DNA of 22,028 bases, taken from positions 1 through 22,028 of the IMG/VR virus record IMGVR_UViG_3300048883_000085; one strand, written 5' to 3'. Both the position numbers and the translations under genes were made by a program. The DNA comes from a virus. Every line of letters starts with the position of its first letter. Within the stretch, counting starts at the first letter, position 1. Shown here in pieces: positions 13,591 through 21,778 of this stretch. The notes beneath the pieces are model-generated. The model ran no database searches and was not told the DNA's origin. It was given only the letters and a program-made list of their open reading frames with translations.

Positions 13591-14187
13591 ATGCCAAGAG
13601 AAAGTAAGTCCCTATTTGACACATTAGAGAGAGAAGCATTTCGTTCTGGAATACAAGCAAGAACTAAAGATTCATCTAAATGGTTTAGAACTAAGGTGCA
13701 AGAATTAGGAAGACAGAACCCACATTCTATGATGAGAGATCAGGCCTTGATAAAGAAAAGAGGGTTTCAAACTGGGTCAATGTATATGTTTATGTATGAT
13801 CCTAAACATAGGAAGACATTACCGTACTATGATTCATTCCCTTTAATCATTGCAGTAGAAAGAGCAAAGGGTGGATTCTATGGGTTGAACTTACATTACC
13901 TCTCACCGGTATTAAGAGCAAGATTTTTAGACAAGTTGATGGAGAATACTAACAATCGTAAGTTCGATGACACAACAAGAATTACAATTAACTATTCTAT
14001 GTTAAAGTCCGTTGCGAAGATGAAAGAATTTCAACCATGTTTTAAACATTACTTAACTAAGCACGTTGATTCGAATATCGTTATGGTAGAATCTCCTGAA
14101 TGGGAAATAGCAATATTCCTTAAAACTGAATCATTTAAAAAGAAATCAAAATCCCATGTATGGGGACAATCAAGAAGGTCGTATTAA
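13591..14187 (+). CDS. Conserved T4-superfamily protein, possibly gp2-like DNA end protector
   Basis: 198 aa, basic, without signal or membrane segment. The notable block is MYMFMYDPKHRKTLPYYDSF followed by PLIIAVERAKGGFYGLNLHY and LSPVLRARFLDKL, then FQPCFKHYLTKHVDSNIVMV and EWEIAIFLKTESF; it ends VWGQSRRSY. I recall this pattern as a conserved protein of marine T4-like phages. In T4, gene 2 (DNA end protector) lies directly beside gene 4, so gp2 is a reasonable candidate; the residues alone do not prove it. The start has no obvious Shine-Dalgarno. The stop overlaps the next ATG by one base (TAATG). Confidence 0.8.
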   Translation: MPRESKSLFDTLEREAFRSGIQARTKDSSKWFRTKVQELGRQNPHSMMRDQALIKKRGFQTGSMYMFMYDPKHRKTLPYYDSFPLIIAVERAKGGFYGLNLHYLSPVLRARFLDKLMENTNNRKFDDTTRITINYSMLKSVAKMKEFQPCFKHYLTKHVDSNIVMVESPEWEIAIFLKTESFKKKSKSHVWGQSRRSY

Positions 14188-14906
14188 TGAGTATATTCAA
14201 TGACAGCTCAATAGATACCTTAAAGGGTTCTATCTCTAGAAGAGGGGGACTCTCGCAGGGAAACCGATTTGCAATTATGATGTCCAATCCATCAGGTCAA
14301 AATATCTTCAATGGTGGAGCAGGTAATGGTCTTGCCAACGTTGGTGCTACTATGGTGGGTAAATTAATCTCAGGTGGTACCGATAACTTTAAATACTCGG
14401 ATCTTGGTTCATTTGTCAACGACCCAAGAGATATGTATCTATTAGCAGAATCATGCTCGCTCCCAGGCCGTGCAATTATAACAGAAGAACGACCAGTTGG
14501 GGACTTTGGTTATACCACTGCTAAAATGCCTTATGGGTATACTACCGATGATGTTACTTTCACTTTCCTTGTGACTAATGATTTCTATACAGTACGATAC
14601 TTAAACTCTTGGATGGACGTAATCTTACCTCAAGACACAGATGGGTCTGGTATGAGAGTGAATTATAAAGGAGCTTACTCGAGAGATATCACAATACAAC
14701 ATATTGGAGCATCAGGGTTTGTTCCTACGTACTCTATCAAATTGATTCAAGCATATCCTGTAGCAATTAATTCAATCGAGTTATCTAATCAATCATCCGA
14801 CATCCTTAAAGTCACGGTAACAATGACATATGATAATTGGATAAAAGAAGATATTGTCCCTTCTGCTGTCAATTCGGTGAAAACTCATATATCCAATATA
14901 TTTTAA
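14187..14906 (+). CDS. 54: Tail-tube-fold protein, probably baseplate tube initiator gp54
   Basis: From ATG at 14187 (AAGAAGG eight bases upstream; overlaps the previous TAA) the protein is 239 aa. After a Gly-rich N-terminal part (residues 25-75), the rest follows the tube-protein pattern: SCSLPGRAIITEERPVGDFG, AKMPYGYTTDDVTFTFLVTN, YLNSWMDVILP, and a closing strand ILKVTVTMTYDNW. This is the fold shared by gp19, gp54 and gp48. Length and N-terminal extension favour gp54 (T4: 320 aa) over the major tube gp19 (163 aa), and gp48 is nearby though on the other strand. gp19 itself cannot be excluded. An in-frame ATG at 14160 is possible but would overlap the upstream gene by 28 bases. Confidence 0.75.
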   Translation: MSIFNDSSIDTLKGSISRRGGLSQGNRFAIMMSNPSGQNIFNGGAGNGLANVGATMVGKLISGGTDNFKYSDLGSFVNDPRDMYLLAESCSLPGRAIITEERPVGDFGYTTAKMPYGYTTDDVTFTFLVTNDFYTVRYLNSWMDVILPQDTDGSGMRVNYKGAYSRDITIQHIGASGFVPTYSIKLIQAYPVAINSIELSNQSSDILKVTVTMTYDNWIKEDIVPSAVNSVKTHISNIF

Positions 14907-14964: not shown

Positions 14965-15681
14965 ATGTCATTACCAAAATTAGCAATACCGAAATACGCA
15001 TTAACTATACCGTCAACAGGTGTAGAAATAGAATATAGACCCTACTTGGTCGGAGAAGAAAAGATATTAATGATTGCATCAGAGTCTAAAGATGAGTCTG
15101 AAATCATCATGGCACTACAGAACGTTATAGAACGATGTATTGTAACTCAAGGAGTGTCCGTCAAGAACCTTAAAATGTTCGATCTTGAATATATCTTTAT
15201 TAAACTGAGAAGTAAGTCAGTAGGGGAAACTTCAGATCTGGTGTTCACTTGTACTAAATGTTCGAAAGAAAATAAGGTTAAGATTAATTTAGAGAGTCAG
15301 TTGACTGTAACATCCCCCGATTCAGCTGCCGGTGATGGAGAGGTATTAAAGATTGCATTAACTGATGATATTGGGATCATGCTGAAATATCCAAATGTTG
15401 GTACTACAGTTAAACTTAATAAAACTACAGATGTTATAGAAAAGATCGCACTTTGCATTGACTATATCTATGAAGGGGATACTATCTATGACTCCGGTTC
15501 TTCAACACTTGCCGAACTCGCATTATTTTTAGAATCATTGACTACAGTACAATTCGATAAATTTACTCAGTATTTCGACACAATGCCTAAAGTAACATTG
15601 TCTACGGAGTTCACTTGCTCTAACACAGAATGTGGACATGTCAATGTATCAGTGATGGAAGGTATCCAAGATTTTTTGTAA
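14965..15681 (+). CDS. 26: Baseplate hub assembly protein gp26-like (zero-frame product)
   Basis: 238 aa (T4 gp26: 208). The N-terminus (MSLPKLAIPKYALTIPSTGV, EIEYRPYLVGEEKILMIASE) and the middle (LKMFDLEYIFIKLRSKSVGE) match the T4 gp26/T4_baseplate family. Cysteine pairs C96-x2-C99 (CTKC) and C218-x4-C223 (CSNTEC) suggest a zinc ribbon. In T4, gp26 is needed for hub assembly. Here the gene lies directly before the tape-measure candidate, where the lambda G/T-type tail chaperones lie. A clear Shine-Dalgarno (AAAGGTG) precedes ATG. The last codons GAT TTT TTG TAA form a -1 slippery site, so a longer product is likely. Confidence 0.88.
   Translation: MSLPKLAIPKYALTIPSTGVEIEYRPYLVGEEKILMIASESKDESEIIMALQNVIERCIVTQGVSVKNLKMFDLEYIFIKLRSKSVGETSDLVFTCTKCSKENKVKINLESQLTVTSPDSAAGDGEVLKIALTDDIGIMLKYPNVGTTVKLNKTTDVIEKIALCIDYIYEGDTIYDSGSSTLAELALFLESLTTVQFDKFTQYFDTMPKVTLSTEFTCSNTECGHVNVSVMEGIQDFL
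15672..15678 (+). promoter_or_regulatory. Probable -1 ribosomal frameshift site T TTT TTG
   Basis: Six T and a G in the X XXY YYZ arrangement relative to the gp26 frame (GAT TTT TTG), directly followed by the TAA stop. After tandem slippage by one base the next codon is GTA at 15678, opening 59 further codons to the stop at 15857. The resulting fusion would be 297 aa. Confidence 0.65.
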
Positions 15682-15857
15682 TCTGCCTTTCCCATACAAA
15701 CCTAATGACGTATTATGATACGTCATTTAATATGGTTCATCATTACAACTATTCATTAACTGAATTAGAGAATATGATACCTTGGGAAAGGGAAGTATAC
15801 ACACATTATATTATAGAACATATTAAAAACGAAAAAGAGCAATTAAATAGGAATTAA
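15678..15857 (+). CDS. -1 frame extension of gp26 (gpT/gp51-like segment)
   Basis: This frame continues from the slippery site for 59 codons: VICLSHTNLMTYYDTSFNMV, then HHYNYSLTELENMIPWEREV and a charged helix ending KNEKEQLNRN. The PWERE-x-Y segment is the kind of short conserved ORF seen after gp26 in other T4-like phages. Internal ATGs at 15705 and 15732 lack any Shine-Dalgarno, and the first lies inside a hairpin arm, so independent translation looks poor and frameshifting is favoured. Its stop is only four bases before the tape-measure ATG. A separately initiated small protein remains the alternative. Confidence 0.65.
   Translation, partial: VICLSHTNLMTYYDTSFNMVHHYNYSLTELENMIPWEREVYTHYIIEHIKNEKEQLNRN
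15704..15727 (+). other. Perfect 10-bp hairpin downstream of the frameshift site
   Basis: AATGACGTAT and ATACGTCATT pair perfectly around a TATG loop. The stem starts 25 bases after the slippery heptamer, further than classical stimulators (about 5-9 bases). It contains the first internal ATG (15705) of the -1 frame. There is no T-run after it, so it is not a typical terminator. Confidence 0.6.
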
Positions 15858-15861
15858 TATA

Positions 15862-17634
15862 ATGGCCAAAAGACCTAAAAGATCCGGTTCTACCAGTGGT
15901 GGTAGTAAAAATCCAATGAAAGGGTTAGAGAAACTGACCGAGAAGTTGATTTCAACTACTACTCAAGAACTCACTAAAGTTCAAGATGCTATTCAAAATA
16001 CTGCTAACGCAGCCTCGTCTAGTCTCGGATCTCCTTCTCCATCCCCTACTGCATCTAAGTCGGGATTACTGGATAAGGCAATGTTGGTATTATCTTTCAA
16101 AAACATGGAAACCAACAGAGATAATACTACTCAGAACACATTGGAAGTTCAACAGGGTGAAGATGCATATAAACAAAAAGAGGGGATGTACTCACTAAGA
16201 GAGACATCTAATGCGATACAAACCTCTATGGATAGCACACTATTCAATATCTATGATCAAGGGGCGAAACTTTCTGGTATAGTCACTGCCCTTAGTAAAG
16301 ATTCGAAGGAACGGTTTTCTATTGATACTTCTGCGAGAAAAACCGCAGAGAAAAATAAAAAGTCCGCAGATAAAGAGTCTAAGATAGAACAGAACGCGTC
16401 TCTCCGTGCTATGATGGAAGGGTTTAAGAAACTTAAGTCTTCTGCTGTAGTTAAAGGTGATAAGGGGTTCATGGAAGGTGGTGGTTTACTCGGTGGTATA
16501 TTAAGAATTGGTATCGAACTGCTAGGTGTGTTGGGTAAAGGCATGTTGATGGCAGTATCACTTGGTGGTAGTATATTGAAAGGTGTGGGTACCTTACTAC
16601 TTAAGAGTGCAAATCCTTTTAGTAAAGGAAAAAAGGTTTCGAAAGGATTAAGAGGAAGCAAAGTATCTAAGAGTTTATCAAAGGTAAAAGATACAAGATT
16701 CATGAATATGGGTAAGAACGTAGTTACAAATACAAAACCCACAGGATTGTTATCTAAAATTCCGAAAATGTTTAATATGAAACTGCTGGGTCGTGCTTCC
16801 AAACTGATAAAAGTTGGTGGGCCGATTGCACTATTACTTGGTGGACTCGTTGCATTTGGTACCAAAGTCGCAGATGGTGGGTATGAGGAACAATTTACTC
16901 AACTGAGAGCAAAGTTTGCAAAACTACAACCCATATTTGATTCATTAGGTGAACTCTGGGATAATATAACCACAGGTTTTACGGATTACGTAATGCCGTC
17001 ATTGGATTGGATAGGTGAGGTAATTGGCAAGTTCTTCACCTTTTTAGGTGATGGTGTAATGACTGCCATCTCTTTGATTGGCAATCAAATCATGAATACG
17101 GTCTTGGGTATCTACCAAATATTTTCGGGAGATATCGTTAAGGGATTAAAAACTATCTTTATGGGTGAAGGTGGCCCTGTGGATATGATTTTAGGGTTTT
17201 TTAAAAAGATAGGAACATGGATCTCGGACATGTTAGGTAAAGCGTGGGAGACGATCAAGGATTTTAACCCTGTGGATGCAATATCCTCATGGTGGTCTGG
17301 TGATGATGATAAACAGAATAAGAATCTATCGACTGATGATACTCCTGCTAATTTGATCACCGTGGAGGAAGGAAACGCAATGGTAAAGGCTGCACTTGAT
17401 AAAATCAATGCAGAACGTGTCGATGCACCTCCGGTGAATAACCCAATATCTTCAGAACAAAAAGGATTACAGGACATGAAAGCCATTGCTGTAGCTTCTA
17501 TGGCAGGATCTGGTGGATCTGGAACTGCGGTGGTAACCAATAATTATATCACTACTGACAATTCAAGTCATAATCAATCTATTGGTCAGACAGGTGCTAA
17601 AGTTCAAGGTAAAACTAGACGACATGGGAGATGA
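15862..17634 (+). CDS. 29: Tail tape-measure candidate (gp29-like)
   Basis: 590 aa, the same length as T4 gp29. N-terminal 1-~200 is polar and helical (LTEKLISTTTQELTKVQDAI). Residues ~203-248 and ~312-333 are hydrophobic Gly-rich helices (LLGGILRIGIELLGVLGKGM; GGPIALLLGGLVAFGTK), and ~383-455 is another hydrophobic helical region with aromatic residues (GEVIGKFFTFLGDGVMTAIS). The C-terminus is Gly/Ser-rich with a TNNYITTDNSSHNQSI stretch. Helical length, buried hydrophobic segments and the place after a G/GT-like chaperone pair all fit a tape measure that sets tail length. I see no catalytic domain. AGGAATT precedes ATG. Confidence 0.78.
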   Translation: MAKRPKRSGSTSGGSKNPMKGLEKLTEKLISTTTQELTKVQDAIQNTANAASSSLGSPSPSPTASKSGLLDKAMLVLSFKNMETNRDNTTQNTLEVQQGEDAYKQKEGMYSLRETSNAIQTSMDSTLFNIYDQGAKLSGIVTALSKDSKERFSIDTSARKTAEKNKKSADKESKIEQNASLRAMMEGFKKLKSSAVVKGDKGFMEGGGLLGGILRIGIELLGVLGKGMLMAVSLGGSILKGVGTLLLKSANPFSKGKKVSKGLRGSKVSKSLSKVKDTRFMNMGKNVVTNTKPTGLLSKIPKMFNMKLLGRASKLIKVGGPIALLLGGLVAFGTKVADGGYEEQFTQLRAKFAKLQPIFDSLGELWDNITTGFTDYVMPSLDWIGEVIGKFFTFLGDGVMTAISLIGNQIMNTVLGIYQIFSGDIVKGLKTIFMGEGGPVDMILGFFKKIGTWISDMLGKAWETIKDFNPVDAISSWWSGDDDKQNKNLSTDDTPANLITVEEGNAMVKAALDKINAERVDAPPVNNPISSEQKGLQDMKAIAVASMAGSGGSGTAVVTNNYITTDNSSHNQSIGQTGAKVQGKTRRHGR

Positions 17635-17638
17635 TGGG

Positions 17639-17935
17639 ATGGAAATGTTTTCTAAATTTGACCTGAATGAAGATGGTAAGTTGACTAAGTCTGAACTGGA
17701 CAGACGCGAGAGGATAATCAATATAGAACGAAGAGAGTCTAGAATGGCATCTCAAAAGAAAATGGCATGGTTGAGCATGGCAACTATGACAGGATTTACT
17801 ATTATATTGTTTACACCTTTAGTACCGGTGGCTCGTGTTCTTGCATTATCTGAGTTGTTAGATCTATTTTATGTAGGTCAAGCATCAGTTGTTGGTGCTT
17901 ATATGGGATTCAGTGCATGGCAATCCGACAAATAG
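17639..17935 (+). CDS. Small membrane protein with an EF-hand
   Basis: 98 aa from ATG 17639, chosen because GGGAG lies eight bases upstream and the start follows the tape-measure stop by four bases; ATGs at 17624 and 17645 are alternatives. Residues 8-19 (DLNEDGKLTKSE) are a complete canonical EF-hand loop: D, N, D at positions 1, 3, 5, G at 6, L at 8 and E at 12. A charged helix follows (RRERIINIERRESRMASQKK), then two hydrophobic stretches (about 43-68 and 72-94; WLSMATMTGFTIILFTPLVP and LFYVGQASVVGAYMGFSAW) that look like transmembrane helices. I recall similar small proteins in marine T4-like phages. Holin, pore or virion roles are guesses. Last gene before the terminator. Confidence 0.8.
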   Translation: MEMFSKFDLNEDGKLTKSELDRRERIINIERRESRMASQKKMAWLSMATMTGFTIILFTPLVPVARVLALSELLDLFYVGQASVVGAYMGFSAWQSDK

Positions 17936-20985: not shown

Positions 20986-21062
20986 TGGCGGAGTGAACGA
21001 GACTCGAACTCGCGACCTCATGCGTGACAGGCATGCGTTCTAACCAACTGAACTACCACTCC
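20986..21062 (-). tRNA. tRNA-Asp (anticodon GTC)
   Basis: Complete cloverleaf of 77 bases: acceptor GGAGTGG with TCACTCC, discriminator G and encoded CCA, anticodon stem CATGC/GCATG with loop CTGTCAC, T-loop TTCGAGT. Anticodon at 21026-21028. Confidence 0.95.
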
Positions 21063-21068
21063 GGAACT

Positions 21069-21158
21069 TGGCGGAAAAGGTGGGATTCGAACCCACGGAA
21101 GGGATAAACCTTCGCTGGTTTTCAAGACCAGTTCTTTAAACCTCTCAGACACCTTTCC
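21069..21158 (-). tRNA. tRNA-Ser (anticodon TGA)
   Basis: 90-base tRNA with the long variable arm of class II tRNAs. Acceptor GGAAAGG pairs with CTTTTCC (one G-U), discriminator G, encoded CCA. Anticodon stem CTGGT/ACCAG, loop CTTGAAA. Confidence 0.95.
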
Positions 21159-21164
21159 ATAATT

Positions 21165-21239
21165 TGGCTCCTCAGGATGGGTTCGAACCACCGACATTTT
21201 GATTAACAGTCAAACGTTCTACCACTGAACTACTGAGGA
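21165..21239 (-). tRNA. tRNA-Asn (anticodon GTT)
   Basis: 75-base cloverleaf. Acceptor TCCTCAG/CTGAGGA, anticodon stem TTTGA/TCAAA with loop CTGTTAA, T-loop TTCGAAC, encoded CCA. First tRNA downstream of the promoter at 21272-21300. Confidence 0.95.
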
Positions 21240-21243
21240 ATAA

Positions 21244-21282
21244 ACTTTATTTCTTACTTTCTATACTATGTATTATACAGTA
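21244..21282 (-). repeat. Promoter-associated direct repeat, copy at tRNA genes
   Basis: Shares with 18985-19024 the minus-strand block TACTGTATAATACA, one variable base, AGTATAGAAAGTAAG, then an A-rich AAAGT end with one indel. The similarity covers the -10 box and the first ~25 transcribed bases; the -35 regions also share CTTGACAT. Confidence 0.85.
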
Positions 21283-21300
21283 TATCTTGAACTATGTCAA
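21272..21300 (-). promoter_or_regulatory. Consensus sigma70-type promoter for the tRNA run
   Basis: Minus strand: TTGACA (21300-21295), 17 bases, TATAAT (21277-21272). The start near 21265 is about 25 bases before tRNA-Asn. It probably reads through tRNA-Asn, tRNA-Ser and tRNA-Asp and on into the 346-aa gene, gp33 and gp59, since no terminator is seen. Confidence 0.85.
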
Positions 21301-21309
21301 GTCTTTATT

Positions 21310-21675
21310 TCATTGTTTCGAATTATATATACCACTTAACGTATAATCTATATCATCAGTACCTTCCAATATCTCCATATCTTCCAGTATCTTTAATATA
21401 TCGGATCTATTATTACATCCATATAGTTCTTTATAACATTTAAAGATTGATAATGTGGTATCTTTAAACTCATAATGATCATGTATTATACAATATGACA
21501 CGATCTCAGTAATAATGATGGGTTTAGGGCCATATCCATTAAATGGTCTAATGTTATCATTCTGCTCAAATCCGACAATGAGTTTGAAACTATCATCAGT
21601 ATCCTGAGCAACTAACCAGTTCTTCGGGGTATTTACCATATCCGGATCAGTTTGCCACCATTGCATGATTGCCAT
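21310..21675 (-). CDS. Unknown 121-aa protein between tRNA genes
   Basis: MAIMQWWQTDPDMVNTPKNW starts the protein; it continues with a short beta region (LIVGFEQNDNIRPFNGYGPK) and a helical, acidic C-terminal half (SDILKILEDMEILEGTDDID). No signal peptide, membrane segment or motif I recognise. It lies between tRNA-Thr and the promoter ahead of tRNA-Asn; its stop is ten bases from the promoter -35. A weak GAG precedes the ATG. Likely one of the small early accessory proteins typical of phage tRNA regions. Confidence 0.7.
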   Translation of the reverse strand: MAIMQWWQTDPDMVNTPKNWLVAQDTDDSFKLIVGFEQNDNIRPFNGYGPKPIIITEIVSYCIIHDHYEFKDTTLSIFKCYKELYGCNNRSDILKILEDMEILEGTDDIDYTLSGIYNSKQ

Positions 21676-21702
21676 AATTCTCGTTTCTATCTATAAGTGA
21701 AA

Positions 21703-21778
21703 TGGAGCTGATGATAGGAGTCGAACCTACGACCGGTTGATTACAAATCAACTGCTCTACCAACTGAGCTACATCAGC
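21703..21778 (-). tRNA. tRNA-Thr (anticodon TGT)
   Basis: 76-base cloverleaf: acceptor GCTGATG/CATCAGC, D-arm GCTC/GAGC, anticodon stem GTTGA/TCAAC with loop TTTGTAA, T-loop TTCGACT, discriminator T and encoded CCA. Confidence 0.95.

What the first reader, a model, noticed from the sequence alone, without database searches (positions are those of the whole stretch)
15661..15857. Probable programmed -1 frameshift fusing gp26 to a downstream PWERE segment
The gp26 frame ends GAT TTT TTG TAA, an exact X XXY YYZ slippery heptamer placed directly at the stop. The -1 frame is open for 59 codons beyond it, carries a conserved-looking helix, and stops four bases before the tape-measure ATG. Neither internal ATG has a Shine-Dalgarno. 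Lambda G/GT and many other phages use this layout to make two tail chaperones before the tape measure; T4 itself is described with separate genes 26 and 51. This suggests that gp26 and its extension are the T4-type counterpart of the G/GT pair.
Basis: partly seen in the sequence, partly recalled or inferred. Interest (0 to 1): 0.85.

Follow-up and report, generated by a model that had tools for sequence, protein, structure and literature searches.

The report
Frameshifted tail-chaperone gene of T4-type phage
The gene called gp26 in this T4-type phage ends in a ribosomal slip site that very probably lets a fraction of ribosomes read on and make a longer version of the same tail-assembly helper protein, as many other tailed phages do; the signal is conserved across distant relatives, but this kind of gene had already been described in T4-type phages.

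Summary
T TTT TTG (15672-15678) sits in phase at the gp26 stop, and the -1 frame runs 59 more codons to 15857. Relatives turn it into a strong case. T TTT TTN occurs in phase near the gp26 end in 104 of 105 diverse loci. The -1 frame has no stop in 148 x 45 codons (684 and 638 in the other two frames). Its peptide is conserved from the slip site on, under purifying selection even where it lacks any start codon. A Shine-Dalgarno-like element lies upstream, and RNA structure is enriched just downstream. The predicted gp26 N-terminal domain resembles solved tail assembly chaperones (HK97 2OB9, YqbN). T4 gp51 matches the long form over its whole length and T4 gp26 the short form; T4 and five other Straboviridae with a separate gp51 lack the T-heptamer. 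So gp26 plus its extension are the short and long chaperones, the T4-type counterpart of lambda G/GT. This is not new in kind: Vladimirov, Gautam and Davidson (Virology 2022; known here only through citing papers) identified the T4-type chaperones, and a citing paper credits it with the poly-T signal. Frameshifting itself is inferred, not measured.

The parts
14965..15681 (+). gp26-type gene, short tail assembly chaperone (TAC-N), 238 aa
   Evidence: PF12322 T4_baseplate E 7e-57; phrog_150 E 2e-60, ending at profile position 232 of 282; predicted model pLDDT 92 with residues 1-95 matching tail assembly chaperone structures
15657..15663 (+). Shine-Dalgarno-like stretch GGAAGGT upstream of the slip site, a possible frameshift stimulator
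   Evidence: best pairing to the 16S 3' end -6.8 kcal/mol in the window; mean over 104 loci -7.0 against -3.0 at random positions; GAG preferred at codon -5 in relatives
15672..15678 (+). slippery heptamer T TTT TTG, in phase, flush with the gp26 stop
   Evidence: T TTT TTN in 104 of 105 representatives
15678..15857 (+). -1 frame extension (TAC-C), 59 codons plus stop; with gp26 gives a 297-aa long form
   Evidence: phrog_634 E 8e-21 and phrog_150 positions 231-279; conserved in A3; no stops, purifying selection
15692..15735 (+). RNA structure: 10-bp hairpin 15704-15727 inside outer stem 15692-15696/15731-15735; possible stimulator, also covers ATG 15705 and ATG 15732
   Evidence: MFE -13.4 kcal/mol, z -3.5; enrichment of structure at this place across loci
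15862..17634 (+). next gene, probable tape measure protein (590 aa), the expected client
   Evidence: position only, plus a weak match to a Streptomyces phage tape measure (E 0.02); no PHROG hit
14160..14906 (+). tail tube gene immediately upstream
   Evidence: phrog_45 E 2e-26; Phage_TTP_2 E 1e-9

Best explanation
The locus makes two tail assembly chaperones from one gene. Normal translation gives gp26 (238 aa). A fraction of ribosomes slip back one base on T TTT TTG just before the stop codon and continue for 59 codons, giving a 297-aa long form. The upstream Shine-Dalgarno-like element and the downstream hairpin probably raise the frequency. By analogy with lambda G and GT, the short form coats the tape measure protein and the helical extension of the long form recruits tail tube subunits; neither stays as part of the finished tail. 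Shown here: the sequence elements, their conservation, coding selection, predicted fold similarity and the T4 relation. Inferred: that slippage happens, its frequency, and the chaperone roles.
For: T TTT TTN in 104/105 representatives, within 0-9 codons of the gp26 stop. TTT at the first slip codon 104/104 (70.4 expected from each gene's own codon use) and T before it 104/104 (76.5 expected). No stop in the -1 frame over 148 x 45 codons against 684 and 638 in the other frames; synonymous:nonsynonymous single changes 81:40 (67% synonymous, neutral expectation 22%) in codons 3-14 of the extension in loci with no start codon in its first 14 codons. 47/104 representatives have no ATG/GTG/TTG in the -1 frame from the last upstream stop to extension codon 14. 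SD-like element and GAG preference 77% vs 26%. RNA structure mean z -1.65 only in the 65 nt after the slip site, elsewhere -0.04 to -0.45. T4 gp51 covers phrog_150 13-280/282 plus phrog_634, T4 gp26 only 14-235; T4 gene 26 spells the same Phe-Phe TTC TTT, and none of six Straboviridae gp26 genes with a separate gp51, T4 included, has the T-heptamer. Fold: top aligned solved structures are 3FGX, HK97 chaperone 2OB9 and YqbN 3KLU.
Against: No protein or ribosome-profiling data. A minority of relatives have an ATG in the -1 frame at or near the gp26 stop (S-PM2, P10VF, Cr30, W-14, Moby, V07), so reinitiation cannot be excluded there. Ackermannviridae (PC3, LIMEstone1) and Pseudomonas phage Cygsa01 lack the heptamer. 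In this window the structure starts 13 nt (outer stem) or 25 nt (inner stem) after the slip site, further than the usual 5-9 nt. Z-scores of the fold matches (7-8) are modest and their Foldseek E-values are not significant.
Confidence: 0.93

Rival explanations
1. The extension is a separate small gene ('gp51', baseplate hub assembly catalyst) translated from its own start codon in the -1 frame: 15705, 15732 or 15774 downstream of the slip site, or 15630 inside gp26, as most public annotations of relatives have it.
For: Public records annotate such genes, for example HTVC008M 45 aa, P-SSM7 31 aa, Melnitz-1 47 aa. phrog_634 is a separate family. In the window a 75-aa -1 frame ORF does begin with ATG at 15630.
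Against: No Shine-Dalgarno before 15705 or 15732, and both lie in RNA stems. The peptide between slip site and first ATG is conserved and under purifying selection. 47/104 representatives have no start codon in the -1 frame there or upstream of it, so 15630 has no conserved counterpart. T4 gp51 carries the extension fused in frame.
Confidence: 0.04
2. Termination-reinitiation: ribosomes stop at the gp26 stop and restart on an overlapping or adjacent ATG (TGATG/TAATG).
For: P10VF, Cr30, W-14, Moby and V07 have an in-frame ATG overlapping the gp26 stop; Ackermannviridae have TAATG without the heptamer, and Cygsa01 has an overlapping start without it.
Against: 74 of 104 representatives have no ATG in the -1 frame between the last upstream stop and extension codon 14. 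In the window the nearest ATG after the stop (15705) is 23 nt beyond it and buried in a stem. Phages with TGATG still keep the T-heptamer.
Confidence: 0.02
3. Transcriptional slippage on the T run makes some mRNAs with a shifted frame.
For: Some loci have runs of 8 T.
Against: This window has only 6 T in a row, short for polymerase slippage (general knowledge). The heptamer is always in the ribosomal phase, and the SD-like element and downstream structure fit a ribosomal signal.
Confidence: 0.01

Closest known systems
Phage lambda G / GT tail assembly chaperones (-1 frameshift)
   Same: Two proteins from one gene by -1 slippage near the 3' end, gene placed before the tape measure gene, short C-terminal extension in the -1 frame; gp26 N-terminal domain resembles the HK97 chaperone
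   Different: Poly-T heptamer instead of the lambda one (G GGA AAG, from memory); longer N-terminal protein with an extra C-terminal part; no Pfam tail chaperone model matched above cut-off
T4 gp26 and gp51 (hub assembly chaperones)
   Same: T4 gp26 is homologous to the short form, T4 gp51 to the long form over its full length
   Different: Two separate divergent genes on opposite strands; slip site absent from gene 26
T4-type tail assembly chaperones of Vladimirov, Gautam and Davidson 2022 (doi 10.1016/j.virol.2021.11.003)
   Same: By the account of PMC10885494 (short gene plus long fusion gene in some T4-like phages) and PMC12846349 (poly-T slip signal in TAC-N genes of T4-like phages), the same genes and signal
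   Different: Paper not held, so the extent of overlap could not be checked; this contig is an additional member
Vandenendeviridae/Andersonviridae chaperone frameshift (phage Adele, PMC12846349)
   Same: Conserved -1 poly-T (GTTTTT) slip site before the tape measure gene
   Different: Different phage families

Membership tests
T4 gp26 / PF12322 T4_baseplate | Profile match above curated cut-off over the full length | tested here: met
   193 bits against cut-off 24.5, profile 2-218/219
Frameshifted tail assembly chaperone pair (G/GT type) | In-phase slippery heptamer near the 3' end with an open -1 frame | tested here: met
Frameshifted tail assembly chaperone pair (G/GT type) | Slip site and -1 frame conserved in relatives | tested here: met
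   104/105 loci; 0 stops in 6,660 codons
Frameshifted tail assembly chaperone pair (G/GT type) | Gene position between tail tube and tape measure genes | tested here: met
   tail tube upstream; the downstream gene is the tape measure by position and a weak match only
Frameshifted tail assembly chaperone pair (G/GT type) | Short protein has the chaperone fold | tested here: met
   3FGX Z 8.2, 2OB9 Z 7.7, 3KLU Z 7.0 over residues 1-95, above unrelated rows; Z is modest, so supportive rather than proof
Frameshifted tail assembly chaperone pair (G/GT type) | Long form is actually made at low frequency | not testable with these tools
   needs mass spectrometry or a reporter
Frameshifted tail assembly chaperone pair (G/GT type) | Binds the tape measure and tail tube proteins and is absent from the virion | not testable with these tools
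   For T4, gp51 is required for assembly but absent from the particle, and both gp26 and gp51 are listed as hub assembly chaperones (PMC3004832)

The most novel reading that the evidence does not exclude
T4-type phages make the short and long tail chaperones in three interchangeable ways: a three-part frameshift signal (SD-like element, T TTT TTN, hairpin) in most lineages; gene duplication with loss of the slip site in the T4 branch of Straboviridae; and an overlapping start-stop without a slip site in Ackermannviridae and a W-14 relative, where the extension would be a separate protein. Phages carrying both the heptamer and TGATG may be intermediates.
Probability: 0.5. Interest if true: 0.45.

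Novelty: new member of a known kind. Interest (0 to 1): 0.35.

Why it matters
[quoted passage not shown] The T4 branch, with two genes and no slip site, is a natural control for what the frameshift is for.

Tried and rejected
Sequence search of gp26 against solved structures: nothing relevant. Pfam and NCBIfam with gp26 members gave no tail chaperone family above cut-off; only HTVC008M gp26 touched PF06896 Phage_TAC_3 at E 0.018. Direct phmmer of T4 gp51 against T4 gp26 found nothing; their relation rests on shared profiles. The extension model alone is of moderate confidence (pLDDT 79) and its fold matches are mostly to relatives, with weak ones to other tail chaperones. Vladimirov 2022 is not in the library. 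An overlapping gene from ATG 15630 in the -1 frame (75 aa) was considered and dropped: that frame is closed by stops 2-21 codons upstream of the extension in all but three representatives, often with no start codon in between.

Full report
Observation. The gp26 frame 14965-15681 ends GAT TTT TTG TAA; T TTT TTG is 15672-15678, in phase and flush with the stop. The -1 frame stays open for 59 codons to TAA 15855-15857, four bases before the next ATG (15862), giving a 297-aa fusion. Among 6,822 codons of called genes in the window this is the only in-phase XXXYYYZ within two codons of a gene end and the only T6 one. The window is a 22-kb virus record from IMG/VR, probably a fragment.

What the parts are. 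gp26 matches PF12322 and phrog_150 up to position 232 of 282; the extension matches phrog_634 and also phrog_150 231-279, so some phrog_150 members carry both parts in one protein. The gene lies between a tail tube gene and a 590-aa gene that is the tape measure by position, with only a weak match to a known one.

Relatives. 56 and 80 loci from IMG/VR and a panel of cultured phages were read mechanically. After removing near copies, 104 of 105 have T TTT TTN in phase, 0-9 codons before the gp26 stop; they include Kyanoviridae, Pootjesviridae, Delftia W-14, Stenotrophomonas Moby, Vibrio and Aeromonas Straboviridae, Cr30 and a sulfate-reducer phage. The exception in that set is an Ackermannviridae phage. 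The extension reads FF-x-x-LSHxSLxxYYxTNFAxMQHHKYSLTELENMxPWEREVY and is conserved from the slip site itself.

Tests. Zero stops occur in the -1 frame over 148 x 45 codons, against 684 and 638 in the other two frames. In loci with no ATG, GTG or TTG in the first 14 codons, single changes are 81 synonymous to 40 nonsynonymous (67% against a neutral 22%). 47 of 104 representatives have no start codon in the -1 frame from the last upstream stop to codon 14, so their conserved peptide can hardly be started independently. At the slip site, codon 1 is TTT in 104/104 (70.4 expected from each gene's own Phe codons) and the base before it T in 104/104 (76.5 expected), including genes that otherwise prefer C. 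Loci are not independent, so these numbers are descriptive. Upstream, pairing to the 16S 3' end averages -7.0 kcal/mol against -3.0 at random places, with GAG 49 of 64 Glu codons at position -5 (background 26%). Downstream, only the 65 nt right after the slip site are unusually structured (mean z -1.65; elsewhere -0.04 to -0.45). In the window the structure is a 10-bp hairpin 15704-15727 within an outer stem, z -3.5; it also buries ATG 15705 and ATG 15732. Its spacing (13 nt to the outer stem) is longer than usual, so its stimulating role is less certain.

Function. The gp26 model is confident (pLDDT 92). Its best solved-structure alignments are 3FGX, the HK97 tail assembly chaperone 2OB9 and YqbN 3KLU, Z 8.2, 7.7 and 7.0 over residues 1-95; Foldseek alone gives 2OB9 the highest probability in its list (0.75) though not a significant E-value. 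In T4, gp51 (249 aa) aligns with the whole phrog_150 profile and phrog_634, gp26 (208 aa) with the short part only. T4 gene 26 and five other Straboviridae gp26 genes (KaAlpha, DLP3, E26, phiAS4, SJ_PmiM) that have a separate long gp51 have no T-heptamer. That is what one expects if duplication replaced the frameshift. T4 gp51 is required for assembly but absent from the particle (PMC3004832). The lambda mechanism (PMC5009743; that review notes the frameshift as widely conserved 'except T4') then gives the most likely roles.

Prior work. Vladimirov, Gautam and Davidson, Virology 2022, 566:9-15, identified the T4-type chaperones; it is not held. PMC10885494 cites it for T4-like phages with one short and one long fusion gene, PMC12846349 for poly-T slip sites in T4-like TAC-N genes. 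The finding is therefore right but not new in kind. What I could not find stated is the three-part signal and the survey of lineages, including those with an overlapping start and no slip site.

Limits. No experiment shows slippage here. Reinitiation may operate in relatives with TGATG or TAATG. Chaperone roles are by analogy.

Noticed in passing
L148, L149 (Ackermannviridae PC3, LIMEstone1) and L162 (Cygsa01), gp26 3' ends: These lack the T-heptamer. In PC3 and LIMEstone1 the -1 frame extension begins with an ATG overlapping the gp26 stop (TAATG); in Cygsa01 the next gene also overlaps the stop by one base. This suggests start-stop coupling instead of frameshifting.
   Followed up: partly
L153 (Synechococcus phage S-SCSM1) 1490-1690: The heptamer is present but the extension lies in the +1 frame (the -1 frame stops after 4 codons): a one-base difference, either a sequencing error or a different shift.
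   Followed up: partly
Records HTVC008M, P-SSM7, C48C1, Melnitz-1, S-CAM3 (L058, L154, L150, L151, L155): 'gp51 baseplate hub assembly catalyst' genes of about 31-47 aa are annotated from internal ATGs of the conserved extension.
   Followed up: partly
window 17582-17935 +: ORF with an EF-hand-like calcium-binding motif (EF-hand_5 E 2e-5, just under cut-off) and hydrophobic stretches, starting near the end of the probable tape measure gene; matches phrog_27150.
   Followed up: no
window 15862-17634 +: Probable tape measure protein with no detectable homologue in PHROGs or cultured phages apart from a weak match to a Streptomyces phage tape measure.
   Followed up: partly
window 20986-21778 -: Cluster of four tRNA genes (Asp, Ser, Asn, Thr).
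   Followed up: no
A2 alignment, gp26 around residues 88-112 and 216-227: Several gp26 members match zinc-ribbon models (Elf1, TFIIS), and T4 gp26 and gp51 have cysteine pairs there: the short chaperone may bind zinc.
   Followed up: no
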